Shown here piece by piece: positions 1 to 55,118 of a stretch of DNA of 55,118 bases. The DNA lies in the IMG/VR virus record IMGVR_UViG_3300036925_000021, positions 1 through 55,118 of that record; one strand, given 5' to 3'. Numbering within the stretch: position 1 is the first letter of the stretch; each line of letters opens with the position of its first letter. The translations under genes were made by a program, and so were the position numbers. This stretch comes from a virus. The notes under the pieces were generated by a model. That model worked only from the letters and a program-made list of their open reading frames with translations, ran no database searches and was not told the DNA's origin.

Positions 1-127
1 GCGCTAGCTGTCACGGCCGCGCCGCTGCCGCGCACCCCCAGCATCAGAGGGGGTGCGCATGGTTGGAAGGCTGCCGCTGGAGCCTTTGGTTGCAACAGCC
101 GGGGAGGAGTTGGGGCCGGCGCCGGAT
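1..127. repeat. 127-bp terminal overlap, left copy
   Basis: Bases 1-127 are identical to 54992-55118. The shared stretch holds the end of the ParB-fold gene (stop at 5-7), a hairpin and the start of the small-terminase candidate. Both genes are intact only when the ends are joined, so the contig is circular or circularly permuted, with a unit length of 54,991 bp. A length of exactly 127 matches a common maximum assembler k-mer, so I read it as an assembly overlap and not as a packaged terminal repeat. Confidence 0.95.
30..58 (+). promoter_or_regulatory. perfect 10-bp hairpin over the ribosome site of the small-terminase candidate
   Basis: GCGCACCCCC (30-39) pairs perfectly with GGGGGTGCGC (49-58), leaving a 9-base loop. 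The right arm contains most of the only Shine-Dalgarno-like sequence (AGAGGGGG, 46-53) and ends directly before the ATG at 59. It also lies just after the stop of the upstream replication operon. It could limit translation of the terminase gene or help stop upstream transcription; there is no T-run, so the first reading is slightly preferred. Confidence 0.5.
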
Positions 128-951: not shown

Positions 952-965
952 CCCCTGGAAAGGAG
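952..965 (+). promoter_or_regulatory. start-associated motif CCCCTGGAAAGGAG
   Basis: An exact copy of the phage-wide motif CCCCTGGAAAGGAG sits just before the ATG at 972. The GGAG forms the Shine-Dalgarno core, but conservation extends well upstream of it. Other copies occur at 5371, 48725 and 52203 (+) and at 45051, 41160 and 35166 (-). Confidence 0.75.
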
Positions 966-3431: not shown

Positions 3432-3477
3432 GCGGCGCCGCTACGGCCCGCGCCCGCGCGCCCGGTAGACTGCTTCG

Positions 3478-5274
3478 ATGCAACCGCCGGACCCCCGGGG
3501 CGGCCTCGCCCTTGCCGACATAGCCCGCCTCGCCCTGGCGCGCGGCCTACGCTCCGCCGGCAGCCTGGCCGGCGACCGGCGTCCGGAGGACAGGCGGGCG
3601 TACGTGGGGCAGCCGGCCAAGTACTTCCGGGACGTCCTGGGCATCACTCGGCTCTGGAGCGTCCAGGAGGAGGCCCTGGACCTGATCGAGCGGCACGACC
3701 GGGTGCTGCTTCCTTCAGGCAACAACCTGGGCAAGACCTTTCTGCTGGGCGCGTACGCCGTCTACTGGTACGACGCCGTGGGCGCGGAGTCGGACCCCGA
3801 GATGGGGCTCACCGAGCGCGGGGCTCGGGTCCTTCTGCCCGGACCCTCCCACCGAACGATCCTCAACACCATCTACGCGGAGATTCTGGAGCACATGGCG
3901 CGCGCTGAGGCGCGCGGGCACAAGATGCCGGGGCGGCGCTCCCAGCTATCCGTGCTCTGCCGGGTGCGGGAGCGCTGGTGCATGGAGCCCATCTCGCCTC
4001 GGACCCGGACGCAGCAGGACGTCACGCACGACGCCTCCGGACGCCACGCGTTCTACCAAATCGCCCTGATCGAGGAGGGGGCCGGCGTCAGCGATGCCGT
4101 GTGGCGCTCCGTTGAGGGCATGTGCTCGTCGGCCGGCAACAAGATCATCTCCTCCTTCAACCCCACCGAGCCGAGGGGGCCGGCGTTCCAGCGGGCCAAG
4201 CTGGCGGGCTGGAAGGTCATCCACTTCGACGCCTTCACCCACCCCAACATCCGCCAGCGCCGCGGAGTCATCCCCTCGGCGATCGATCACCGAGTGATCG
4301 ACCAGCGGGTGGTGGACGATTGCACCGACCTGGGGCCGCCCCGGGTGGGTTTGGTGCCCGACCCCCAGCTGCATGACTTCTGGTACGCCGTGCCGCCGGA
4401 CGGGGTGTCGGACGATGGCGGGGGGCGCGCGGACGGTGTGCCGGGCCATCCGCGGGGCGAGGTCCGCCTCTACCGGCCCAGTAACACGTTTCTCGCGCAA
4501 GTGCGCGGGCAGTGGCCGGCCTCTGCGCACTCGGGGCTGTTCGATCCGGGCGCCTGGGACGCGGCCGTGCGCCGGGGGGAGGAGACGCCGATGCCCGGCG
4601 GGCCTCCCGAGCGGGTCGGCTTCGACGTCGCGCGGGAGGGGGACGACACCTCAGTGCTTGCCCCTGCCTGGGGTCGACCTGCGGCGGTTCTGCTGCGGGA
4701 CCGCCACGACGCGCTGGTGGCGCGCGACGAGGCGGCGCTGGCGCGGCTCCAGGCCGATGGCCGCGCCCGGGTCGGCTGGCCGGTCCCCCTTGCCAAGGGC
4801 CGCGGGCCGGCGACCGCCCGCCAGGCGTCGAGCAGCTACCCCGACGCCTCGGTCCTTTGGATCATCGACGAGGGCAGCGTCGGCGCAAGCCCGCTGGATC
4901 ACATGGGGGAAGTCCTCGGCCGGGAGGTGGTGCCGGTGAGCTTCGCCGCCAGCCCCCCCGACGAGCGGCTGCCCGGGGAGCCCTACGCCGCCAACATGCG
5001 GGCGTCCCTGTTTATCCGGGCCGCCATGCTGGTCAACGCCGGCTTGGTTGATCTCCCGGATGATCCGGATCTCCGGGAGGAGTGCCTGGCCCACGAGGTC
5101 ATACACGAGGCCCGGACCGTCGTCGACGACAACGGCCAGCGGCATCGAGTTGAGGCGGTCCGGGTCGAGCCGAAGGACAAGGTGAAGAAGAAGCTCGGCC
5201 GCTCCCCGGACCGCGCCGACGCTTTGGTCCTCTCCCTCTTCGAGCCGCCTGGCGGCGGATGGGGCCTCACCTAG
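3478..5274 (+). CDS. terL: terminase large subunit (packaging ATPase and nuclease)
   Basis: This 598-residue protein is the DNA-packaging motor. The N-terminal ATPase has a deviant Walker A, SGNNLGKT (residues 80-87), and Walker B IALIEE (195-200). The C-terminal RNase-H-like nuclease shows three acidic sites: GFDVAREGDDTS (D383), WIIDEG (D464) and SPDRADAL (D578/D581). The asparagines in the P-loop replace the usual flexible residues but keep GKT. The start ATG lies 46 bases after the multi-HTH gene; the ribosome site is weak. A fragment of the nuclease region (4609-4636 forward, 4688-4722 inverted) is duplicated at 6923-6985. A GC hairpin follows the gene. Confidence 0.93.
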   Translation: MQPPDPRGGLALADIARLALARGLRSAGSLAGDRRPEDRRAYVGQPAKYFRDVLGITRLWSVQEEALDLIERHDRVLLPSGNNLGKTFLLGAYAVYWYDAVGAESDPEMGLTERGARVLLPGPSHRTILNTIYAEILEHMARAEARGHKMPGRRSQLSVLCRVRERWCMEPISPRTRTQQDVTHDASGRHAFYQIALIEEGAGVSDAVWRSVEGMCSSAGNKIISSFNPTEPRGPAFQRAKLAGWKVIHFDAFTHPNIRQRRGVIPSAIDHRVIDQRVVDDCTDLGPPRVGLVPDPQLHDFWYAVPPDGVSDDGGGRADGVPGHPRGEVRLYRPSNTFLAQVRGQWPASAHSGLFDPGAWDAAVRRGEETPMPGGPPERVGFDVAREGDDTSVLAPAWGRPAAVLLRDRHDALVARDEAALARLQADGRARVGWPVPLAKGRGPATARQASSSYPDASVLWIIDEGSVGASPLDHMGEVLGREVVPVSFAASPPDERLPGEPYAANMRASLFIRAAMLVNAGLVDLPDDPDLREECLAHEVIHEARTVVDDNGQRHRVEAVRVEPKDKVKKKLGRSPDRADALVLSLFEPPGGGWGLT

Positions 5275-5322: not shown

Positions 5323-5336
5323 TTATAGGTTATAAT
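5323..5336 (+). promoter_or_regulatory. palindromic TATAAT promoter for the accessory operon
   Basis: TTATAGGTTATAAT is an A/T island in very GC-rich DNA. It ends in a perfect -10 box (TATAAT, 5331-5336) and is nearly symmetric (TTATA/TATAA). No good -35 box lies 17 bases upstream, so an activator or a phage-specific polymerase partner may be needed. Thirty-four bases separate it from CCCCTGGAAAGGAG at 5371, and a CCCCAC/GTGGGG hairpin (5340-5364) lies in the leader. The same three-part design recurs on the minus strand at 41.2 kb and 35.2 kb. Confidence 0.7.
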
Positions 5337-5370
5337 CCTCCCCACGGCGCTCCCGTTGGTGGGGGTGCCG

Positions 5371-5384
5371 CCCCTGGAAAGGAG
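5371..5384 (+). promoter_or_regulatory. start-associated motif CCCCTGGAAAGGAG
   Basis: An exact copy, followed by AAGC as at 952, sits just before the ATG at 5391. It supplies the ribosome site of the exonuclease gene. Confidence 0.75.
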
Positions 5385-9520: not shown

Positions 9521-9724
9521 GTGGTACCCGCGATGATTCAGGCGGTCGTCACCAAGGTCGAGGACCGGATGGAGACGGCCGAAAGCGATGCGGAGGCCGC
9601 CGAGCTGCTGGCCCTCCGCGAAGCCCTGGGGGAGGCCCTGGCGCTGGCCCGCCTGCTCTACCCCGAGGGCGAAAGCGAGGAGGAGTGCAACTTCGTGGCG
9701 GATGCGGCCAGGCCGCCGCCTTGA
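9521..9724 (+). CDS. small acidic helical protein, 67 aa
   Basis: The GTG start lies eight bases after AGGAGG in the conserved leader. The chain is acidic and strongly helical (KVEDRMETAESDAEAAELLAL... LARLLYPEGESEEECN). It has no signal peptide or membrane segment and no domain I know. It lies between two hairpins (9413 and 9782) and may be a separately controlled small gene. Confidence 0.6.
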   Translation: MVPAMIQAVVTKVEDRMETAESDAEAAELLALREALGEALALARLLYPEGESEEECNFVADAARPPP

Positions 9725-9781
9725 CGGCGACGCGCTGCGCGGGCTACGATGATCACGCTCGCTCCTGACACCACAAGGGAA

Positions 9782-9817
9782 GAGGGGGCCTCCGGCGGCA
9801 ACGCTGGAGGCCCCCTC
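9782..9817 (+). terminator. perfect 12-bp stem-loop terminator candidate
   Basis: GAGGGGGCCTCC (9782-9793) pairs perfectly with GGAGGCCCCCTC (9806-9817) around a 12-base loop. The T-run is missing (GCTGCTTCT follows), but stem strength and position between genes support a terminator or RNA-processing structure. Confidence 0.55.
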
Positions 9818-9841
9818 GCTGCTTCTGGTATCGTTCTGCGC

Positions 9842-10144
9842 ATGCAACCGCTTTTCCCAGCCCTGAGCCCCAGGATGGCCAACGCGCTGGAGCGGCTCGC
9901 CCGGGCGGCCCTGCGCGGCCTCGACCGGCCGCGCCTCAGTCCCGGATGCATCAACGCTCTTGAGCGACGCCGGCTCGTCGCCGGCGGCCACGTCCTGACG
10001 CTGGCCGGCTGGGTGCGCTCCGTGCCGCTGCTCCAGCGCCGCGACCAGGGGGCAGCGGTTCGCATTCTTACTGAGGCCGCCTGGCGGATCTCCGCCGGCG
10101 CCGCCGGCCTTCTTCTTCATCAACCAAGGCAGAAACCGTCGTAG
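9842..10144 (+). CDS. winged-helix-like small protein, 100 aa
   Basis: The ATG at 9842 has no Shine-Dalgarno, but TATCGT at 9829 could make the transcript leaderless. Residues 8-65 (LSPRMANALERLARAAL... LSPGCINALERRRLVAGG... LTLAGWVRS) have the pattern of a winged-helix domain as in MarR-type and many small phage proteins: a helix, a recognition helix ending in LERRGLV-like sequence, and a wing. It may regulate the neighbouring acb2 unit, which is an inference from position only. Confidence 0.65.
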   Translation: MQPLFPALSPRMANALERLARAALRGLDRPRLSPGCINALERRRLVAGGHVLTLAGWVRSVPLLQRRDQGAAVRILTEAAWRISAGAAGLLLHQPRQKPS

Positions 10145-10157
10145 AGGAGACCTGCTC

Positions 10158-10424
10158 ATGAAGCATCCCAGCAACACCCCCGTCTTGATGGACGATCTCG
10201 TCGACCTCTTCACCTACCACCCGCCGGCCGACCGCAGGGTCACGGATCGCTACGAGACGATTCGCGGTGCGGCCCTCACCCTGGCACGAATCATCATCGC
10301 CAGCTGTCCCGGCGGCGCGGATTGCGAGGCGGCCATTCGCAAGGTCCGTGAGGCCGTGATGACTGCCAACGCCGCAATCGCCTGTGAGCCCCCCCGGAAC
10401 GGCTTCGACGAATCGCCCCGATGA
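10158..10424 (+). CDS. acb2: Acb2-type anti-CBASS cyclic-nucleotide sponge
   Basis: The 88 residues match the Acb2 family (homologues include T4 Vs.4): FTYHPP at 18-23, RYETIR at 31-36, a Cys-Pro at 50-51, and the terminal helix VREAVMTANAAIA at 63-75. Characterised Acb2 proteins are small helical hexamers that bind cyclic di- and trinucleotides made by CBASS (and in some cases Thoeris-type) defence enzymes and so block the defence effector. The GAGGAGA ribosome site supports the ATG at 10158. It lies in the accessory operon beside a small winged-helix gene and overlaps the next gene's start. Confidence 0.85.
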   Translation: MKHPSNTPVLMDDLVDLFTYHPPADRRVTDRYETIRGAALTLARIIIASCPGGADCEAAIRKVREAVMTANAAIACEPPRNGFDESPR

Positions 10425-10819
10425 GACCGCGCCTCACCATCACGCTGGAGCTCGCCGCCGGCGACAGCGACCCCGAGGGCCTTCTCGACGACCTGGACGG
10501 GCAGCTTCCGGATCGCCGCGGCGGGGCTGCGGGGGCGGTGTTCGCGCGCGACGCGGCCAGGGTGGAGCCGCAGCGCGGAGCTGCTGGGCCTCGGGTGCGC
10601 CTCGATGTGCGCCTGGGCGACCCGGCGGCGCGCGATGGCTTCCAGGCTGCAGCGCTTGCCCGCGTCGAGCGCGGCCCTCATGCGTCGCGGATCGTTCGCG
10701 GCCAGATCTCTCGGCACGCTTGCCATCACGACGACGAACCGCGGCGACCCTGCGCTCATCCGGAGGTCGTGTGGACGCACCCCAACGGTCCCCCTCGAAG
10801 CGACGAGCCGGACCTGTAG
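10421..10819 (+). CDS. hypothetical protein, 132 aa
   Basis: The ATG overlaps the acb2 stop (ATGA). The first 40 residues (MRPRLTITLELAAGDSD... LLDDLDGQLPDRRGG) look like a beta strand and helix of a small folded domain. The remainder is Arg/His/Pro-rich and less protein-like, so the true end or frame is uncertain. Third-position GC is high in this frame, which supports it over the minus-strand alternatives. Function unknown; co-expression with acb2 is likely. Confidence 0.5.
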   Translation: MRPRLTITLELAAGDSDPEGLLDDLDGQLPDRRGGAAGAVFARDAARVEPQRGAAGPRVRLDVRLGDPAARDGFQAAALARVERGPHASRIVRGQISRHACHHDDEPRRPCAHPEVVWTHPNGPPRSDEPDL

Positions 10820-10832
10820 GCGAGCGCCCCTG

Positions 10833-10841
10833 TGCTATGAT
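10833..10841 (+). promoter_or_regulatory. extended -10 promoter candidate TGCTATGAT
   Basis: TGC followed by TATGAT is an extended -10 element in the gap after the accessory operon. No -35 is evident. It would start a transcript near 10848, running into the hairpin at 10919 or on into the head genes. Confidence 0.4.
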
Positions 10842-10847
10842 CGGTGC

Positions 10848-10950
10848 GTTCCTCCTCGTGGCTCGTGTGGCAACCCGCCATAACCGCAGGCCGGAGCATC
10901 CCTTTCCAGGGGCCGTGACGGGGAGGGGGCAGCCGCCCCCTCCCCGAACC
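10848..10950 (+). ncRNA. candidate small RNA with anti-ribosome-site segment
   Basis: The 217-base gap 10820-11036 has no convincing gene. A promoter-like TGCTATGAT (10833) and a strong hairpin (10919-10946) would bound an RNA of roughly 100 bases. Inside it, CCTTTCCAGGGG (10901-10912) is the exact reverse complement of CCCCTGGAAAGG, the core of the start-associated motif found before at least five genes. The RNA could therefore pair with those ribosome sites. The alternative is a stray minus-strand copy of the motif. This is an inference from sequence alone. Confidence 0.3.
10919..10946 (+). terminator. perfect 12-bp hairpin terminator
   Basis: CGGGGAGGGGGC (10919-10930) pairs perfectly with GCCCCCTCCCCG (10935-10946) around AGCC. 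A weak GGTTTCC tract follows. It separates the accessory operon from the head operon. Confidence 0.65.
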
Positions 10951-11036
10951 GGTTTCCCCCCTCCCCCCAGCCTCCAGCGATCTTTCCGAGCCCCCCTTCC
11001 GCCCCCTAGGTCATCCGCGCTACGCTCGGCGGCGTG

Positions 11037-11327
11037 ATGATGCGCAGGCTTCGAGACGTTGCTTCAAGCCACGGGGCGGCGATGGTCTTTCGGGCGACCG
11101 CGTACTTTCAGGCCCTCCCGCGCGGCCACCGCTGGATCCTCTCGTGGGCCGTTGGCGGCGGCCTGGTCGCCGCCTCCATCGCCGGCATGGCGGGTGGCGG
11201 TCGCTGGTGGTGGCTGGTGGCGACCTGGGCCGGGCTCCTGATCCTTGCGCGCACCGGGCTGGGAGTCCTCCTCACTGTGCTCTGGCTCGGCGTCGACGGC
11301 CTCAAGGATAAGGCGGGCCGCTCGTGA
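11037..11327 (+). CDS. small membrane protein, 96 aa
   Basis: After a basic N-terminus, residues about 34-56 (WILSWAVGGGLVAASIAGMA) and 60-90 (RWWWLVATWAGLLILA, LGVLLTVLWLGV) form two or three membrane helices, followed by a short charged tail. No Shine-Dalgarno is present before the GTG/ATG cluster at 11034-11040. It lies directly before the portal, whose GTG overlaps its stop. A membrane protein in this position is not part of the standard head set. A holin-like or DNA-entry role is conceivable but unsupported. Confidence 0.65.
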   Translation: MMRRLRDVASSHGAAMVFRATAYFQALPRGHRWILSWAVGGGLVAASIAGMAGGGRWWWLVATWAGLLILARTGLGVLLTVLWLGVDGLKDKAGRS

Positions 11328-13714
11328 GCGACTGGACCGACGTCGCTCGCCGGCTCGTCGTCGGCCGGGCGACGAGCAACACCTCGCCGTACGCCGATGA
11401 AAGCCTGGCCAGCGCGGCGCATGGGCTCCTGGGCGGATTCCTCAGCCGCGGGGGCGCGCTGGCCGGCAGCCAGACGCGCGCCCAGGGGGAGCTGCTCCGG
11501 CTCTACGGCACCACGCCGATTATCCGGATGGTGTCGTACAAGATCGCGGAGACGATCGCCTCCTGCCAATGGTCGCTCCATGCGATGCGCGGCTCACAGC
11601 AGCGCGCGCGAGCGGCGCACTACGCGGCCCAGCAGCGCTACTGGCGGCTCCGGAGCGCTACGAAGCTGCGCGCCGCCGGCGAGCTGGAGGAGGTGGAGGC
11701 GCATCCCTTCCTGGACGGCGTGCGCCTCGGTACGCCGCTTCTGCTTGGCCATCTCAACCTCCAGGTCTCTCAGATCTGCTACGACGTGTCCGGCGAGTAC
11801 TTCTGGGTTCTGGATCGCAACGCCGCCGGCGTGCCCCACCGCTGGTGGGTGGTACCGCCCCACTGGGTCTCCGAAACGCCGACGCTCCAGACCCCCTTCT
11901 TTCGCATCCTGGTCCACGGGGTCAATATCGAGATCCCCATCGAGGACATGGTGTGGGTGCGCGATCCGGACCCCTGGTCGCCCTACCGCCGCGGCACCGG
12001 CGCTGCCCGCTCGCTCGCCGAGGAGCTGGACGCGGACCGCTTCGCCGGCAGCTTCACCTCGCAGTTCTTCGCAAACAACGCGGTGCCCAACCTGCTCATC
12101 ATGGGGCCAAAGCTCAACGAGACGACGCGCGGGCAGATGTCGCGGCGGTGGCTCGATCGCCTTCAGGGCCTGTACAAGAAGTGGCTCCCCTACTTCATGG
12201 AGGCACCGCACGGCGCCCAGGTAAAGGAGCTGTCCCAGGACTTCCAGGCGATGAATTTGGTGGAGCTGCGGAACCGGCACAAGAGCCTCGCTATGGAGGT
12301 CTTCGGCCTCAACCCCGAAATCCTGGGGCACGTCGTCGGGTCCAACCGCGCCACCAGCACGATGGCGCAGCAGAACTTCAGAGCCCACGTCGTCATCCCC
12401 AGGCTGGAGCTGATCCGCGCGGTGTTTCAGTACCGCATCCTCCCGCTCTACAACTCCCCGCGCCCGCTGGTCGCGGAATACACGCTGCCGGAGCTCCAGG
12501 ACCCCGAGCTGGAGCTGGACTACTTCAAGGCCGCGCCATGGGCGCAATCGATTTCGGAGATCCGCCGGCGTCAAGGAGCCGACCCTGCGGAGGACCTGCC
12601 GGACGACGTCCATGCCATCCCGCTCGCCGTGCGGTGGAAGTCACGCGCCGAGCTGCTCAACCCTCCCGCGCCGCCGGCGCCGCCGTTACCCGCAAGCGAC
12701 GAGGGCGGGGACGAGGGTGCGGACGATGCCGAGGAGGAGGCCGAGCCGGCGGAGTCGAAGGCCGCCAGCCACCGCTCGGGGTCCGCGGCGCGCTGGTGGC
12801 CATGGCGTCGAAGGGCTACGGGCGAGGCAGAGTTTTGGGAGGCCTTCATGGCCCTTGCCGAGTCGCTGGAGGGGGAGGCGCGCGACGTGTTCCTCCAGGC
12901 GGCGGCAGCGCTGAAGGACCCCTGGACGGTCGACGACCTGGAGGACCTCATCCGCGACATCGGCGACGCCGATCTGGCAGCGGACCGGGTCGCGGCGGCC
13001 CTCGGGGACGACCGCGCGATGATCGGCCTGGAGGCAGGCTCGGACACCGTCGAAACGCTCATCGTCGAGGCGGCGGCGCTGGCGCGCGACAACCTCATCA
13101 CGGACTTCGGGCTGGGGGCGGTGGACATGGAGGCCTTCTCGGCCCGCGCGGCGAACGCTGCCGCCAGCGTGGTCGGGGAGGAAATCACAAACGTCTCAAA
13201 AAAGACGATCGAGGCGGTCCGGGATCGCATCGTGGCCGGGTACGAGGAGGGGCGCAAGACCCGCGAGATCGCCGAGACCGTCAAGGAGGTCCTCGGCCTC
13301 GACAAGCCGCGAGCGGAGCAGCTCGACAAGTTCATCCGCGGCCTCAACAACCGCCCCCCTCATCTGCCGGATCTCACCCAGGCCGAGATCAACGCAAAGA
13401 TCCAGCGCGAGTACGCGCGGCTCCTCGACCAGCGAGCGTGGACGGTCGCCCGCACGGAGAACCTGCGCGCCGCGACGACGGGCCAAAACGAGCTGTGGCG
13501 CGAGGCCGCCTCGCAGGGCATCATGGACCCGACCGAGTACCGCCGGCGCTGGGTGCGCGTGCCGGCCGCGACGGACTGCCCGATTTGCGAGAGCTACGAG
13601 GGCCAGGAGGTCGGCATCAGCGTTCTGTTCGACGGGATCGAGGGCAAGCTCGACGGGAGCCCAGCGCACGCCAACTGCCTGTGCGCCATCCAGCTGATTC
13701 GCCTGGGGGACTGA
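11324..13714 (+). CDS. portal protein fused to a MuF-like minor head domain
   Basis: This 796-residue protein starts at a GTG overlapping the previous stop. Residues about 1-450 are an HK97-type portal: LLRLYGTTPIIRMVSYKIAE, PPHWVSETPTL, EDMVWVRDPDPWSPYRRGTG, and FGLNPEILGHVVGSNRATST near residue 330-350. After a Pro/Asp/Glu linker (about 447-485) comes a helical region and then a C-terminal MuF head-morphogenesis domain: ARTENLRAATTGQNELWREA (about 707-727), CPICESYEGQEV (about 751) and HANCLCAI (about 782). Portal forms the dodecameric DNA gate; MuF proteins are minor head proteins packaged in the capsid. These are usually two genes, so the fusion is notable. Confidence 0.9.
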   Translation: MSDWTDVARRLVVGRATSNTSPYADESLASAAHGLLGGFLSRGGALAGSQTRAQGELLRLYGTTPIIRMVSYKIAETIASCQWSLHAMRGSQQRARAAHYAAQQRYWRLRSATKLRAAGELEEVEAHPFLDGVRLGTPLLLGHLNLQVSQICYDVSGEYFWVLDRNAAGVPHRWWVVPPHWVSETPTLQTPFFRILVHGVNIEIPIEDMVWVRDPDPWSPYRRGTGAARSLAEELDADRFAGSFTSQFFANNAVPNLLIMGPKLNETTRGQMSRRWLDRLQGLYKKWLPYFMEAPHGAQVKELSQDFQAMNLVELRNRHKSLAMEVFGLNPEILGHVVGSNRATSTMAQQNFRAHVVIPRLELIRAVFQYRILPLYNSPRPLVAEYTLPELQDPELELDYFKAAPWAQSISEIRRRQGADPAEDLPDDVHAIPLAVRWKSRAELLNPPAPPAPPLPASDEGGDEGADDAEEEAEPAESKAASHRSGSAARWWPWRRRATGEAEFWEAFMALAESLEGEARDVFLQAAAALKDPWTVDDLEDLIRDIGDADLAADRVAAALGDDRAMIGLEAGSDTVETLIVEAAALARDNLITDFGLGAVDMEAFSARAANAAASVVGEEITNVSKKTIEAVRDRIVAGYEEGRKTREIAETVKEVLGLDKPRAEQLDKFIRGLNNRPPHLPDLTQAEINAKIQREYARLLDQRAWTVARTENLRAATTGQNELWREAASQGIMDPTEYRRRWVRVPAATDCPICESYEGQEVGISVLFDGIEGKLDGSPAHANCLCAIQLIRLGD

Positions 13715-35153: not shown

Positions 35154-35166
35154 CCCTTTCCAGGTG
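35154..35166 (-). promoter_or_regulatory. start-associated motif, variant
   Basis: Read on the minus strand this is CACCTGGAAAGGG followed by CAAGCGATG. It keeps CCTGGAAAGG of the consensus and is 31 bases from the -10 box. Confidence 0.6.
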
Positions 35167-35196
35167 GCCAGCCGGGCTGATTCCCGGCTCGCCCTT

Positions 35197-35210
35197 ATTA
35201 TAAGTTATAA
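35197..35210 (-). promoter_or_regulatory. palindromic TATAAT promoter
   Basis: On the minus strand TTATAACTTATAAT ends in a perfect -10 (plus-strand 35197-35202). A leader hairpin, AGCCGGG/CCCGGCT (about 35170-35189), and the start-associated motif variant follow, the same layout as at 5323 and 41197. The symmetric element could also drive or repress the divergent lysis genes. Confidence 0.65.
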
Positions 35211-40200: not shown

Positions 40201-40959
40201 TTACGCCGCGGCGCTGCTTGCGGCCACGGCCGCGGCCGTGGCGGCCTTCCTCGGGGCGGCCTTCTTCGCGGCGGCCTTCTTCGCGGCGGCCTTCTTCGGG
40301 GCGGCCTTCTTCGCGGCGGCCTTCTTCGCGGCGGCCTTCTTCGGGGCGGCCTTCTTCGCGGCGGCCTTCTTCGGGGCGGCCTCGCTCATGAAGGTGAGGC
40401 AGCGAGCCTGCAGGGCCTTCGGGGGGGTCGGCATCGGCTTGCCCTGCCGGCTCCGCTTCGCCGGCCACACGGCGATCGAGGATCGCTTCGGCCGCTTGCC
40501 CCTGGGAAGCAGCTCGTTGATCGCGCGCACCCGCTCCTCGGTGCCCATGCCCACGGATGCCATCCATTGGCAAAGGCCGCCGACGTCGACGCCCTCGATC
40601 TCGAACGTGTTGTTGGGGCTGGGGTTGGTGGTCTCGGCCCCGCTGAGCTTCTTCTGTCGGGCGGTCTTCGTCTTCGTAGCCATGGTGAATCTCCCAATGT
40701 GTTCGGGCGTCACGAGCCAGAAGTCTGACTCCGTCCGCCCCTCGGTTTCCAACCAGTACGCCTCGCGGCGCACGATCGCGCCGCTTTCGATGTCCCTGAA
40801 GCCTGACACCCTTCCGCCATAGATCTCGGCGTGAGTGCCACGAATGAACCGCAGGCTGGCGCGCGCCGCGCCCTGCGGCTCCTCGATGAGAATCGAGCGA
40901 CCGTCCCGCGCCGGGGGGCGCGGTGCAAGCTCGTCCAGCTTCTTCTTCCTGCCGGTCAT
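40201..40959 (-). CDS. histone H1-like protein with N-terminal extension, 252 aa
   Basis: The ATG at 40959 overlaps the preceding stop. Residues 1-92 (RSILIEEPQGAARASLRFIR, GFRDIESGAIVRREAYWLET) look like a small beta domain. A second ATG at 40683 (MATKTKTARQKKLSGAE) has its own GGGAGA site, so a 160-residue short form is possible in the same frame. The later part has a globular stretch (FEIEGVDVGGLCQWMASVGM) and a tail of AAPKK/AAAKK repeats encoded by nine 15-base units, like bacterial histone-H1 (HU-tail or Hc1) proteins. DNA compaction or host nucleoid binding is expected. Confidence 0.75.
   Translation of the reverse strand: MTGRKKKLDELAPRPPARDGRSILIEEPQGAARASLRFIRGTHAEIYGGRVSGFRDIESGAIVRREAYWLETEGRTESDFWLVTPEHIGRFTMATKTKTARQKKLSGAETTNPSPNNTFEIEGVDVGGLCQWMASVGMGTEERVRAINELLPRGKRPKRSSIAVWPAKRSRQGKPMPTPPKALQARCLTFMSEAAPKKAAAKKAAPKKAAAKKAAAKKAAPKKAAAKKAAAKKAAPRKAATAAAVAASSAAA
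40246..40380 (-). repeat. nine tandem 15-bp units encoding AAPKK/AAAKK
   Basis: Units of TTCTTCG(G/C)GGCGGCC repeat from 40246 to 40380 on the plus strand, the first with one change. Read on the minus strand they give the Lys/Ala/Pro tail of the H1-like protein. Unit number is likely to vary by slippage. Confidence 0.95.
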
Positions 40960-41147: not shown

Positions 41148-41160
41148 CTCCTTTCCAGGG
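41148..41160 (-). promoter_or_regulatory. start-associated motif (minus strand)
   Basis: CCCTGGAAAGGAG, read on the minus strand, forms the ribosome site of the gene starting at 41141. It lacks only the first C of the consensus. Confidence 0.75.
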
Positions 41161-41196
41161 AAGCAGTGGCGGGGACCATCCCCGCCCGGTACAACC

Positions 41197-41210
41197 ATTA
41201 TAAGTTATAA
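41197..41210 (-). promoter_or_regulatory. palindromic TATAAT promoter
   Basis: TTATAACTTATAAT on the minus strand ends with a perfect -10 (41202-41197). A leader hairpin GGCGGGGA/TCCCCGCC (41168-41186) and the start-associated motif (41160) follow; 36 bases separate -10 and motif. The promoter overlaps the stop codon of the upstream DUF6166 gene, so it gives a second, internal entry to the minus operon. Confidence 0.7.
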
Positions 41211-42038
41211 GGACGCCATCTGCAAACCCCTGCCCGCCCACTCCCGAACGCAGGCCTCGCATGCCCGCGTTGGGGGAACGCGCCGCCTGGTGATCGGCAC
41301 CTCCCCGAAGGGCAGGCGCGCGCCACACGCCGCGGTGATCGCGCCACCCGGCTGCTGCTGCCGGACGAGCCAATGGAATCGAGCCTCGGCCACATCTGCG
41401 CCATCCGCCCAGCCCCGCGCCCACCGGTTCCGCGGGCGGGCGTTGAACCAGGCGGCGATCTGCGAGGCCCTCAGCTCGGCCTCCCTGCCGATGAGTCGCG
41501 CGATGACGTCGTCCTTGAAGGCCTGGTGGTGCGCCAGGGCGAGATCGTCGCCAACGGCCTCCGCCAGGATGGCGAGCGCCAGTTGCGCCGGTCCGGAGCC
41601 GGCGTAGCCCATCTCGAAGCCGGTCGGACTGTGATCCATGAGATCCAGCCGGGGTGGCAGGGGCCGGCTCTCGCCGGCGCGGAGGACCTCGACATCGAGG
41701 CCGCCCGTCTCGCCGCGCACCATGAGGAAAATCACCTCGCCGTGCGGCTGGGGCGCCGCGACGGGCAAGGCCCGCTCCGCGGCCTGGGCGCGACGGTGCA
41801 TGCGGTTGGCTCGCTCGATCTGATCCATGAGAAGGTGCCGAAGGTAGATCAGCTCGTTTGACCCACCTCCCACCAGGACGGCGTCGACATCGCCGACCAA
41901 CTCGGCGAACGAGACGGCATCGCCCCTCCCTGCCAGCGCCTCGCGGAGCAGCTCTAGGCCCGTCGCTTGCGCCGCCCCCTCATCCTCCGCGGCGACGGCA
42001 ACGTAGGCACCTACACGATAGACGCGCCGGCCGCTCAC
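41205..42038 (-). CDS. DUF6166-domain protein with C-terminal Cys/His cluster, 277 aa
   Basis: GTG 42038 overlaps the ParB gene's stop (GTGA). Residues about 100-200 match DUF6166: RLDLMDHSPTGFEMGYAGSG and PAQLALAILAEAVGDD, then AFKDDVIARL. This domain is widespread in high-GC phages and plasmids and has no known function. Before it are a small beta domain (YRVGAYVAVAAEDE) and a coiled coil (LRHLLMDQIERANRMHRRAQ). The C-terminus adds CGARLPFGE and RACEACVREW, perhaps zinc. Its last codons carry the 41.2-kb promoter. Confidence 0.78.
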   Translation of the reverse strand: MSGRRVYRVGAYVAVAAEDEGAAQATGLELLREALAGRGDAVSFAELVGDVDAVLVGGGSNELIYLRHLLMDQIERANRMHRRAQAAERALPVAAPQPHGEVIFLMVRGETGGLDVEVLRAGESRPLPPRLDLMDHSPTGFEMGYAGSGPAQLALAILAEAVGDDLALAHHQAFKDDVIARLIGREAELRASQIAAWFNARPRNRWARGWADGADVAEARFHWLVRQQQPGGAITAACGARLPFGEVPITRRRVPPTRACEACVREWAGRGLQMASL

Positions 42039-43807
42039 GACGACCCATCCTTCGCCCCCCCCTTCGCCTTCTTCGCGGTGGCCTTCGCGCCCATCTTGGC
42101 CGCGGCCTTCTTCTTCTTCTTCGCCCTCGGCGTTCCGTCCTCGTTGAGCAACGCCCAGGACCTCGGGTCCGCCAGCTCGGCGAAGGCGCCCGCGCGGATC
42201 TCCTCGGCGTCGTCCGCCTTGCCCACCATGCCGGCGAGGGCGAGAGCCTCGGCGAGCTGCAGGTGGGTATCCACCCACGAGCCGTATTTCATTCGGGCGG
42301 CGAGCACGTATTGCAGGCGCACCCAAAGCTCAACCCGGAGGGCCAGCTCGTTGTCCGCGTAGAGGGTCCAGCGCGCCATCGCCGCGCTCGTTTTCTTCTT
42401 CTTGACGTGCGCTTTGAGCGTCTTCGGGTCGAGTGCTCCGTCGAGTGCTCCATTGCCATACAGAGCGTGGACATCGGCCGACGCCCGCTCCTCCTTGTGA
42501 GACGTTCCGATCGCGGCGACGAGACGGCAGAGGGCGTCCGCCGAAGGGAGGCAGCCATCATCCTGGATCCAGCGAAGGATCGCGCTCCAAAGGCGTTCAA
42601 CAGCCAGCTTCTCGCGGCGCCGGTTCAGCGCCGCCCGGCGCTCCGGCAGCGGCGTGGGCGCCCCCTTCGGCCGAGCTGCCTTGCCGCCGCCCCGCGCTGG
42701 TGGTGCGCACCAAGTGACCTTCCCCGGCTCCTGCGGGTCAAGGGCGGCGATCGCCCCGCGGGACCCCTTGCGAACCTTCTCCACTGCGTAGCGCTCGATC
42801 GTCCTGGCCCCCGCCGGCAGACCCTCCCCGCCCCCCTGATAGGCGACGACGACGTAGACGTTGTCCGCCCCGTGGTCGGCCACGAGCTGGCGATAGCGTC
42901 GCGCCAGGAACGCCTGGCGCTTTGCCTCGTAGCAGGGGGGCCGCAGGCACAGGTCTTTCGCGCCCTCGACCTCCCACAGGTGGGGCTGTTGCGACGTCCG
43001 GGCGGGGCAGTCGCTGCAGGCCCCAGCCTCCGGGACCAGCTCCGCGTCGTCGCGCCGCCAGGGAGCCCCATCCAGGGATCGCTGGACGCGCTGCGCGATG
43101 TAGCTGCGGAGCCGCGCGACGGTGGGTATGCCGTTCCACCACTGCTCGGAGACCTCCTCCAGGAGCCGCGCCTGGACGTCGGGTTCGAGGCGCGCGACGA
43201 GCTCCAGGTGGCCAACACCCCAGCTGGCCACCTGGCCATTCTCCTGCTCGGCCGCCTCCAGCCATGCCGGCACCAGGTCGTTGAGGGCCATCCGCCGCGC
43301 CACCCAGGACTCGCTCTTGCCGATCTCGGCGGAGACGGCGGCGACGTCGCCGCCCCGCTGCTCCATGAGCAACCTGACGGCACGGGCGGAGGGGATCGGT
43401 TCCAGCCCCTCGCGCTGTAGGTTCTCGATGACGGTGATCTCCAACGCCTGCGCGTCCGTCATCGCCTCGTGGACCATGGCGGGGATGCTGGTGCGACCCG
43501 CAAGGCGCGAGGCGCGGACGCGCCGCTCCCCGGCGACGAGGAGGTACCCCACCTTTGGGGCCGGCGCCCCCTTCGGCCGCGCCACCGCGCCGCCGGGGGC
43601 GGGGGCGGGGCGAACGACCACCGGCTCGATGACACCGCTCTGCGCGATGGAAACGGCCAGCTCCGCGAGGGCGGGATCATCCTCGCGGAAGCGCCGCGTC
43701 TGGTGCGGTGAGGGGGCGATTGCCGCGAGATCCAGGTGGGGGTCGAAGCGCGGCTCCGGCGAACCGCTGGTCGTCGTCGTCTTCGAGGGGGTCTTCTTCT
43801 TGGCCAT
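42035..43807 (-). CDS. ParB/KorB-like DNA-binding protein, 590 aa
   Basis: Residues about 24-130 form the ParB/Srx nuclease-like domain: LDLAAIAPSPHQTRRFREDD, GYLLVAGERRVRASRLAG and TVIENLQREGLEPI. An HTH follows (MEQRGGDVAAVSAEIGKSES, WVARRMALNDL), as in ParB and KorB. The long C-terminal part has a Cys pair cluster (GACSDCPARTSQQP, CLRPPCYE) and a Lys/Ala tail. No ParA is encoded, so plasmid-type partition is doubtful. Phage proteins of this kind can act as regulators or CTP-dependent DNA clamps. Two overlapping genes flank it in the minus operon. Confidence 0.85.
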   Translation of the reverse strand: MAKKKTPSKTTTTSGSPEPRFDPHLDLAAIAPSPHQTRRFREDDPALAELAVSIAQSGVIEPVVVRPAPAPGGAVARPKGAPAPKVGYLLVAGERRVRASRLAGRTSIPAMVHEAMTDAQALEITVIENLQREGLEPIPSARAVRLLMEQRGGDVAAVSAEIGKSESWVARRMALNDLVPAWLEAAEQENGQVASWGVGHLELVARLEPDVQARLLEEVSEQWWNGIPTVARLRSYIAQRVQRSLDGAPWRRDDAELVPEAGACSDCPARTSQQPHLWEVEGAKDLCLRPPCYEAKRQAFLARRYRQLVADHGADNVYVVVAYQGGGEGLPAGARTIERYAVEKVRKGSRGAIAALDPQEPGKVTWCAPPARGGGKAARPKGAPTPLPERRAALNRRREKLAVERLWSAILRWIQDDGCLPSADALCRLVAAIGTSHKEERASADVHALYGNGALDGALDPKTLKAHVKKKKTSAAMARWTLYADNELALRVELWVRLQYVLAARMKYGSWVDTHLQLAEALALAGMVGKADDAEEIRAGAFAELADPRSWALLNEDGTPRAKKKKKAAAKMGAKATAKKAKGGAKDGSS

Positions 43808-45029: not shown

Positions 45030-45420
45030 CCTCGGGGCTCCTTTCCAGGGGGGCGATGGGTGGGGTAACGGCACAGCGGCACATGTGGTGGAACGGTGGC
45101 TGTAGCTCCTCCGGGAAGCGGTGCTCCTCGCGACAGCGGCGGCACCTCCTGATGGTCCCGTACGGAACGGGGACCAGGCCAATGACGCGCGCGCCGAAAC
45201 CCACCGACCACTGCCCGCCGATCGGCAGGACCTGGGCGTCGGCCAGCTCTGGCTTGAGTATCTCGGCCATGGCGAGGATGGAAACCGGCTGGCCCCACTG
45301 GTGGCCACGCACCGCGCAGGTGACGCGGCGAAGGAGCTGGCCAAGCCCGGCGATCCGACCGCGGAGTAGGGCGCGGAGCGAGCGGGGCATAAGGAGGATC
45401 TGGTCGAGGGTCTGGCGCAT
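45004..45420 (-). CDS. basic protein with Cys cluster, 138 aa
   Basis: Read from ATG 45420. The N-terminal half is basic and helical (LMPRSLRALLRGRIAGLGQL). The centre (GLVPVPYGTIRRCRRCREEH) and later HHMCRC give four cysteines and two histidines, enough for one zinc site. The 3' end overlaps the next gene by 26 bases, and that gene's start-associated motif lies inside it. No family is recognised. Confidence 0.62.
   Translation of the reverse strand: MRQTLDQILLMPRSLRALLRGRIAGLGQLLRRVTCAVRGHQWGQPVSILAMAEILKPELADAQVLPIGGQWSVGFGARVIGLVPVPYGTIRRCRRCREEHRFPEELQPPFHHMCRCAVTPPIAPLERSPEDEGEQLLT
45038..45051 (-). promoter_or_regulatory. start-associated motif (minus strand)
   Basis: An exact CCCCTGGAAAGGAG on the minus strand, nine bases upstream of ATG 45029. 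It lies inside the preceding coding sequence, showing that the motif is tied to translation starts more than to promoters. Confidence 0.75.
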
Positions 45421-48724: not shown

Positions 48725-48738
48725 CCCCTGGAAAGGAG
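48725..48738 (+). promoter_or_regulatory. start-associated motif CCCCTGGAAAGGAG
   Basis: An exact copy just before ATG 48745 of the SMC-like gene; it overlaps no promoter. Confidence 0.75.
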
Positions 48739-52202: not shown

Positions 52203-52216
52203 CCCCTGGAAAGGAA
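52203..52216 (+). promoter_or_regulatory. start-associated motif, last base changed
   Basis: CCCCTGGAAAGGAA lies nine bases before ATG 52225; 13 of 14 bases match the consensus and the 12-base core CCCCTGGAAAGG is exact. Confidence 0.7.
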
Positions 52217-54405: not shown

Positions 54406-54998
54406 GGACGAAGCTGTGGAGAGTCGAGGACCTGAGGGAGCCCAGCTACAACCCGCGCACCATGACGGACGGGCAGCGCGCGCAGCTCCAGGCGTCGCTG
54501 GCCGAGTTCGGGGTGGTCGTGCCCATCGTCGTGAACACCCACCCGGGGCGAGAGGGGGTGGTCGTCGGCGGCAATCAGCGCGTCGCGGCCCTCCGCGAGG
54601 CGGGCGAGGCGCGAGTGCCGGCGGTCGAGGTGGATCTAGCCCCGGAGCGGGAGCGCGCCCTCTGCCTCCGCCTGAACCGCAACACCGGCGAGTGGGACCA
54701 CGAAAAGCTCCAGGCCGCCTTCAGCAACGACGAGCTCCTCGCCGTTGGCTTCGAGGGCTGGGAGCTGGGGATCATTCTGCCCGCGGATGAGGACCCCCTC
54801 AGCCACGACGTCGACGCTGAGGCGGGAATTCACTCAACGACCGACTATGCCGAGCCGCGGATGGCGGTGCTGGCGGCGCGGCTGGATGAGCTGCGCGCTG
54901 CCTTCACGCGCGTCGAGCTAAGCAAAGGCAACCTGCCGTGGAACCAAGAGACCTACCCCTTCTACCCGCCGAACGTGTATGTGTATTGCTGGCGCTAG
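54402..54998 (+). CDS. ParB/Srx-fold protein, 198 aa
   Basis: It starts at ATG 54402 overlapping the previous stop. Residues 5-120 form a ParB-like nuclease fold: VEDLREPSYNPRTMTDGQRA, ASLAEFGVVVPIVVNTHPGR, VVVGGNQRVAALREAGEARV and RLNRNTGEWDHEKL. It lacks the HTH and C-terminal dimer domain of partition proteins. Many phages and mobile elements have such short forms beside methylase or replication genes. The final ~60 residues are helical. The stop lies in the terminal overlap, just before the hairpin and the small-terminase candidate. Confidence 0.8.
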   Translation: MRTKLWRVEDLREPSYNPRTMTDGQRAQLQASLAEFGVVVPIVVNTHPGREGVVVGGNQRVAALREAGEARVPAVEVDLAPERERALCLRLNRNTGEWDHEKLQAAFSNDELLAVGFEGWELGIILPADEDPLSHDVDAEAGIHSTTDYAEPRMAVLAARLDELRAAFTRVELSKGNLPWNQETYPFYPPNVYVYCWR

Positions 54999-55118
54999 CT
55001 GTCACGGCCGCGCCGCTGCCGCGCACCCCCAGCATCAGAGGGGGTGCGCATGGTTGGAAGGCTGCCGCTGGAGCCTTTGGTTGCAACAGCCGGGGAGGAG
55101 TTGGGGCCGGCGCCGGAT
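54992..55118. repeat. 127-bp terminal overlap, right copy
   Basis: This is identical to 1-127. It contains the last bases of the ParB-fold gene, the 10-bp hairpin (55021-55049) and the first 69 bases (from ATG 55050) of a duplicate of the small-terminase candidate, cut off by the contig end. It is not a separate gene. Confidence 0.95.

What the first reader, a model, noticed from the sequence alone, without database searches (positions are those of the whole stretch)
10848..10950. Candidate small RNA complementary to the phage-wide ribosome-site motif
The gene-free gap at 10.82-11.03 kb holds an extended -10 promoter (TGCTATGAT, 10833), a perfect 12-bp hairpin (10919) and between them CCTTTCCAGGGG, the exact complement of CCCCTGGAAAGG. 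That 12-mer is found directly before the starts at 972, 5391, 48745, 52225 (+) and 45029 (-), with near copies before 41141 and 35147 (-). An RNA made here could pair with many phage ribosome sites at once and time their translation. The competing reading is a displaced minus-strand copy of the motif; but on that strand the next ATG follows the motif without spacing and opens only a short frame.
Basis: partly seen in the sequence, partly recalled or inferred. Interest (0 to 1): 0.75.

Follow-up and report, generated by a model that had tools for sequence, protein, structure and literature searches.

The report
Late-leader RNA complementary to ribosome-site motif
An unclassified phage marks several of its non-structural genes with one shared ribosome-site tag, and carries the exact complement of that tag in an untranslated stretch, just after a strong promoter and before its head genes; a well-studied mycobacteriophage group has the same kind of complement in a conserved RNA hairpin, which suggests, but does not prove, an RNA that turns early genes down.

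Summary
CCCCTGGAAAGG occurs six times exactly (0.02 expected): five copies sit 8-10 nt before an ATG, and the sixth is reversed at 10901-10912 in a gap that is non-coding on both strands. The motif is a Start-Associated-Sequence (SAS) type element, as in Cluster K mycobacteriophages; three modules have promoter + hairpin + motif + ATG. A strict promoter scan of both strands finds four sites: those three modules and 10836(+), which reads into the complement 60 nt downstream and on to the portal operon. The following hairpin has no U-tract, so a leader is likelier than a terminated sRNA. The rival, a reversed relic of the hairpin+motif module, also fits. No relative of this phage was found, so covariation is untestable here. 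Cluster K gives an independent parallel. Its lone reversed SAS lies in the gap where late transcription of Adephagia starts, as the 10-nt loop of a hairpin with compensatory stem changes, invariant in 12 Anayavirus genomes. But other Cluster K phages keep SAS without it, and Cluster EF has none. Verdict: complementarity real; antisense leader plausible (about 0.45), discrete sRNA unproven.

The parts
10833..10841 (+). extended -10 promoter TGCTATGAT (TGTGCTATGAT with the two bases before it); weak -35
   Evidence: one of only 4 strict promoter hits on both strands of the window; intergenic
10848..10900 (+). predicted 5' leader from the inferred start site to the complement; non-coding
   Evidence: codon score of ORF 10844-10918 is -0.34 per codon against +0.22 for genes
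10901..10912 (+). CCTTTCCAGGGG, exact complement of the ribosome-site motif (anti-motif)
   Evidence: CCUUUCC mostly unpaired in the longer leader foldings, partly paired in the 98-nt one
10919..10946 (+). perfect 12-bp GC hairpin after the anti-motif; no U-tract follows, so leader structure rather than intrinsic terminator
   Evidence: z -3.58 for 10848-10950
11034..11327 (+). first ORF after the gap (97 aa; possibly starts at 11082), directly upstream of portal
11324..13714 (+). portal / head morphogenesis protein, start of the head gene operon
952..963 (+). motif copy, 8 nt before ATG 972
5331..5382 (+). module: TATAAT promoter, hairpin, motif (5371-5382), 8 nt before ATG 5391 (DnaQ-like exonuclease)
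35155..35202 (-). module: TTATAACTTATAAT promoter, hairpin, motif (1 mismatch), 7 nt before ATG 35147
41150..41202 (-). module: TTATAACTTATAAT promoter, hairpin, motif (1 mismatch), 8 nt before ATG 41141
45040..45051 (-). motif copy, 10 nt before ATG 45029
48725..48736 (+). motif copy after a hairpin, 8 nt before ATG 48745 (P-loop protein)
52203..52214 (+). motif copy, 10 nt before ATG 52225

Best explanation
The 12-mer is an SAS-type extended ribosome site: GAAAGGAG can pair with a 16S tail, and CCCCTG is conserved beyond it. It sits before seven genes, none of them recognised as structural. The gap at 10.82-11.03 kb is the untranslated leader of the head-gene transcript started by the 10836 promoter. 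The exact complement of the motif in this leader pairs in trans with the tagged mRNAs, covers their Shine-Dalgarno sequence and turns their translation down as the head genes come on. Shown: the sequence elements, their strand and order, the non-coding state of the gap, and the complementarity. Inferred: transcription, timing, trans pairing and repression. A leader that continues into the operon is likelier than a separate sRNA.
For: Exact 12/12 complement, 0.02 exact copies expected by chance. A strict promoter scan of 55 kb x 2 strands gives 4 hits: three motif modules, and 10836(+) aimed at the complement; a reversed relic would land within 100 nt downstream of such a promoter in about 3% of non-coding positions. 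Non-coding on both strands. Duplex -22.9 kcal/mol against -13.3 for a generic 16S tail with the motif. Seed CCUUUCC about 0.6-1.0 unpaired in the longer leaders. Parallel in Cluster K: the single reversed SAS forms the 10-nt loop of a hairpin in the 92/93 gap, is invariant in 12 Anayavirus genomes, and the stem has 8 pairs with two-sided changes over 15 genomes (0/500 shuffles reach that). The Adephagia RNA-seq paper states that late transcription appears to start in that gap (PMC11373665).
Against: No transcript data and no relatives of this phage. The hairpin-then-motif order on the minus strand equals that of the sense modules, as a relic would show. In the 98-nt leader the complement is partly paired with itself. 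In Cluster K, Pixie, Keshu, Oscar, Chris, Omnicron and ZoeJ lack the anti-SAS loop (Pixie, Oscar, Chris and Omnicron were scanned and keep many SAS copies), and Amginevirus/Unicornvirus loops are imperfect complements. Cluster EF AnnaSerena has no reversed SAS. In GC-rich DNA the duplex energies with the motif genes do not stand clear of all other starts.
Confidence: 0.45

Rival explanations
1. Reversed relic: a copy of the hairpin+motif half of the SAS-like module was carried into this gap on the minus strand. It drives no gene and has no function; the 10836 promoter simply serves the head operon.
For: Hairpin directly upstream of the motif on the minus strand, as in 4 of 7 sense copies; the Cluster K paper reports occasional sites away from gene starts.
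Against: A 12-mer kept exact without selection, no remnant of the promoter half or of an ORF, and coincidence with one of only four strict promoters, on the opposite strand.
Confidence: 0.33
2. Discrete small RNA of about 100 nt: starts at about 10848, ends at the 10919 hairpin, acts on many ribosome sites in trans.
For: Promoter, gap and hairpin in the right order; strong folding of 10848-10950, z -3.58.
Against: No U-tract after the hairpin, although this phage has a classic one at 37711-; the fold score is driven by the GC hairpin. No Rfam match (sub-threshold matches are to animal microRNA families).
Confidence: 0.1
3. Local control element of the head operon: the hairpin and CCCCTGGAAAGG/CCTTTCCAGGGG are the site of a DNA- or RNA-binding phage protein that also binds the sense modules, so strand does not matter.
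For: Pope et al. favoured DNA-binding proteins for the ESAS inverted repeats; the phage encodes a ParB-like protein with unknown targets.
Against: The motif is asymmetric and held at a nearly fixed distance from ATG, as expected for translation; hairpin sequences differ between modules.
Confidence: 0.12

Closest known systems
[quoted passage not shown] Microbacterium Cluster EF counterpart (PMC7302621)
   Same: Asymmetric 12-13 nt repeat containing the Shine-Dalgarno core, a few nt before mostly ATG starts of non-structural genes, conserved beyond 16S pairing; about half have an upstream inverted repeat with promoter; four K1 phages have one reversed site not at a gene start.
   Different: Different sequence (CCCCTGGAAAGGAG vs GGGATAGGAGCCC / GGGAAAGGACCCC), fewer copies (7 sense), no detectable relationship of the genomes; hairpins here are not a shared sequence.
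Anti-SAS hairpin in the late-leader gap of Anayavirus (Cluster K1), recognised in this work
   Same: Complement of the phage's own ribosome-site repeat in an untranslated region between a candidate promoter and genes transcribed late.
   Different: There the complement is the whole 10-nt loop of a long conserved hairpin; here it precedes a hairpin and may fold on itself. No sequence homology.
c4 antisense RNA of phages P1/P7 (PMC12197685)
   Same: Phage antisense RNA that pairs around a ribosome site, with complementary sequence placed in loops.
   Different: c4 acts on the ant mRNA; here one RNA could act on seven genes. No Rfam match in the window.
T4 RegA translational repressor (PMC3014915)
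   Same: Works alike in outcome: one trans factor represses many phage mRNAs at their initiation regions.
   Different: RegA is a protein and its sites are A+U-rich without an exact repeat.

Membership tests
SAS (start-associated sequences) | short asymmetric repeat with Shine-Dalgarno core, a few nt before ATG, in one orientation relative to genes | tested here: met
   7 copies, 7-10 nt from the 12-mer end to ATG, all ATG
SAS (start-associated sequences) | conservation beyond the bases that pair with 16S rRNA | tested here: met
   CCCCTG exact in 5 of 7, one mismatch in 2; a generic 16S tail pairs with the 3' part only
SAS (start-associated sequences) | 10-19 copies per genome | tested here: not met
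   7 sense copies + 1 reversed; Cluster EF has ten
SAS (start-associated sequences) | consensus GGGATAGGAGCCC (Cluster K) | tested here: not met
   different sequence; the claim is 'of the SAS kind', not a Cluster K SAS
ESAS | promoter plus inverted repeat upstream of the motif in a subset | tested here: met
   3 of 7 with promoter and hairpin, 4 of 7 with hairpin
ESAS | conserved 17-bp sequence of the inverted repeat | tested here: not met
   hairpin sequences differ between copies
trans-acting antisense sRNA | own promoter | tested here: met
   10836, strict scan; sequence evidence only
trans-acting antisense sRNA | defined 3' end (intrinsic terminator) | tested here: not met
   hairpin without U-tract
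trans-acting antisense sRNA | covariation with targets in relatives | not testable with these tools
   no relative found
trans-acting antisense sRNA | transcript detected | not testable with these tools
   virus record without expression data
c4 antisense RNA | match to an Rfam family | tested here: not met
   no match at gathering score in the window

The most novel reading that the evidence does not exclude
Phages that tag early genes with one ribosome-site repeat also make a late leader RNA carrying its complement, which switches the tagged genes off together. The arrangement arose separately in this phage and in Cluster K1 mycobacteriophages, where it would explain the unexplained reversed SAS.
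Probability: 0.33. Interest if true: 0.85.

Novelty: new variant of a known kind. Interest (0 to 1): 0.6.

Why it matters
The function of SAS/ESAS elements has been open since 2011; Pope et al. asked whether they bind a protein or an RNA. If an anti-SAS leader RNA exists, one RNA would control a set of phage genes at the ribosome site. The idea can be tested at once in Adephagia on M. smegmatis, where the conserved hairpin and the late-transcript start coincide.

Tried and rejected
Minus-strand gene at 10899-10756: rejected, non-coding score and 1-nt spacing. Plus-strand coding through the gap (frame of 10384-11037; 24-aa ORF 10844-10918): negative codon scores. Intrinsic terminator: no U-tract. 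Motif scan of viral contigs: 23 contigs with one copy each, so no family. Loose promoter+complement scan: 39 matches taken as chance, none with a tagged gene in the stretch held. Module scan: none. Searches with capsid, portal, terminase and a motif gene gave only distant relatives or none. Rfam low-score matches are animal microRNA families. Duplex energies over all starts do not single out the motif genes in 70% GC DNA.

Full report
Observation. All features are at the stated places. CCCCTGGAAAGG occurs six times exactly on the two strands, against 0.02 expected. Five copies are 8-10 nt before an ATG, and two one-mismatch copies are 7-8 nt before an ATG. The sixth exact copy is reversed at 10901-10912. 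The gap from 10820 to 11033 has negative codon scores in the frames tested on both strands. The preceding ORF 10421-10819 scores neutral, so the non-coding stretch may be longer.

What the motif is. GAAAGGAG is complementary to a 16S tail ending in CUCCUUUC (own knowledge; the host is unknown). CCCCTG is conserved without that pairing. Three copies (5371+, 35155-, 41150-) belong to a module: TATAAT-type promoter, 31-36 nt to the motif, a hairpin in between, then ATG. Four of the seven sense copies follow a strong hairpin, each in about the top 3% of random sites. The closest known kind is the Start-Associated Sequence with Extended SAS of Cluster K mycobacteriophages (PMC3203893) and Microbacterium Cluster EF (PMC7302621). 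Sequence and copy number differ.

The reversed copy. Two readings compete. As a minus-strand relic it has the hairpin in the right order, but no promoter, no coding ORF and 1 nt to the ATG. As a plus-strand RNA element it follows TGTGCTATGAT, one of only four strict promoter hits on both strands of the window; the other three are the modules. The RNA would carry the exact complement 60 nt after the -10. Predicted pairing with the motif is -22.9 kcal/mol, against -13.3 for a generic 16S tail. The seed CCUUUCC is mostly free in the 113- and 186-nt leaders, less so in the 98-nt one. The hairpin after it lacks a U-tract, so I expect the RNA to continue into the 97-aa ORF and portal: a leader rather than a terminated sRNA.

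Comparative test. The window phage has no usable relatives, so I tested the idea in the analogue. Pope et al. note that four K1 phages have one reversed SAS not obviously at a gene start. I found it at the same place in Adephagia, Anaya and Angelica, between a TTTTAGACT promoter-like site and the next gene (93 in Adephagia). The plus strand folds into a long hairpin whose 10-nt loop region CTCCTATCCC is the complement of the SAS core GGGATAGGAG. In 12 Anayavirus genomes this stretch does not change, while over 15 genomes the stem has 8 pairs changed on both sides, with 0 of 500 shuffles as high and slid controls far lower. A 62-nt probe of the hairpin finds 107 records. [quoted passage not shown] I found no description of this hairpin in the papers I could search.

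Limits of the parallel. SAS persists where the loop is gone or changed: Pixie, Oscar, Chris and Omnicron keep 9-20 forward SAS matches (up to 2 mismatches) without it, Keshu and ZoeJ lack the loop too, and Amginevirus and Unicornvirus have pyrimidine-rich loops that pair imperfectly. AnnaSerena has ten SAS and no reversed copy. So the complement is optional where it exists, and the window case stands on one genome.

Conclusion. The complementarity and its promoter are real sequence features. An antisense leader that acts on the tagged genes is the best single explanation (0.45), a reversed relic the main rival (0.33). Transcription, timing and repression are inference.

Noticed in passing
L025:28585-28722 (Adephagia 58584-58721) and the same gap in L026-L032, L034, L040-L048: Conserved structured RNA in the Cluster K late-transcript start region, with compensatory stem changes; in most Anayavirus the loop is the SAS complement. 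No convincing Rfam match.
   Followed up: partly
window 1-127 and 54992-55118: Exact 127-bp direct terminal repeat: the record is probably a complete genome.
   Followed up: no
window 40201-40959 (-): Protein with a C-terminal run of AAPKKAAAKK repeats (15-bp tandem repeats), like histone H1-type tails.
   Followed up: no
window 42035-43807 (-): Large ParB-like protein (590 aa) in a phage without an identified centromere.
   Followed up: no
window 9721-9820 (+): Second promoter-like site (TTGACG/TACGAT) followed by a strong hairpin GAGGGGGCCTCC..GGAGGCCCCCTC before a possible ORF at 9842; similar layout to the 10.8-kb gap.
   Followed up: no
window 3460-3478 (+): TAGACT 6-7 nt before the terminase ATG: possible leaderless start.
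   Followed up: no
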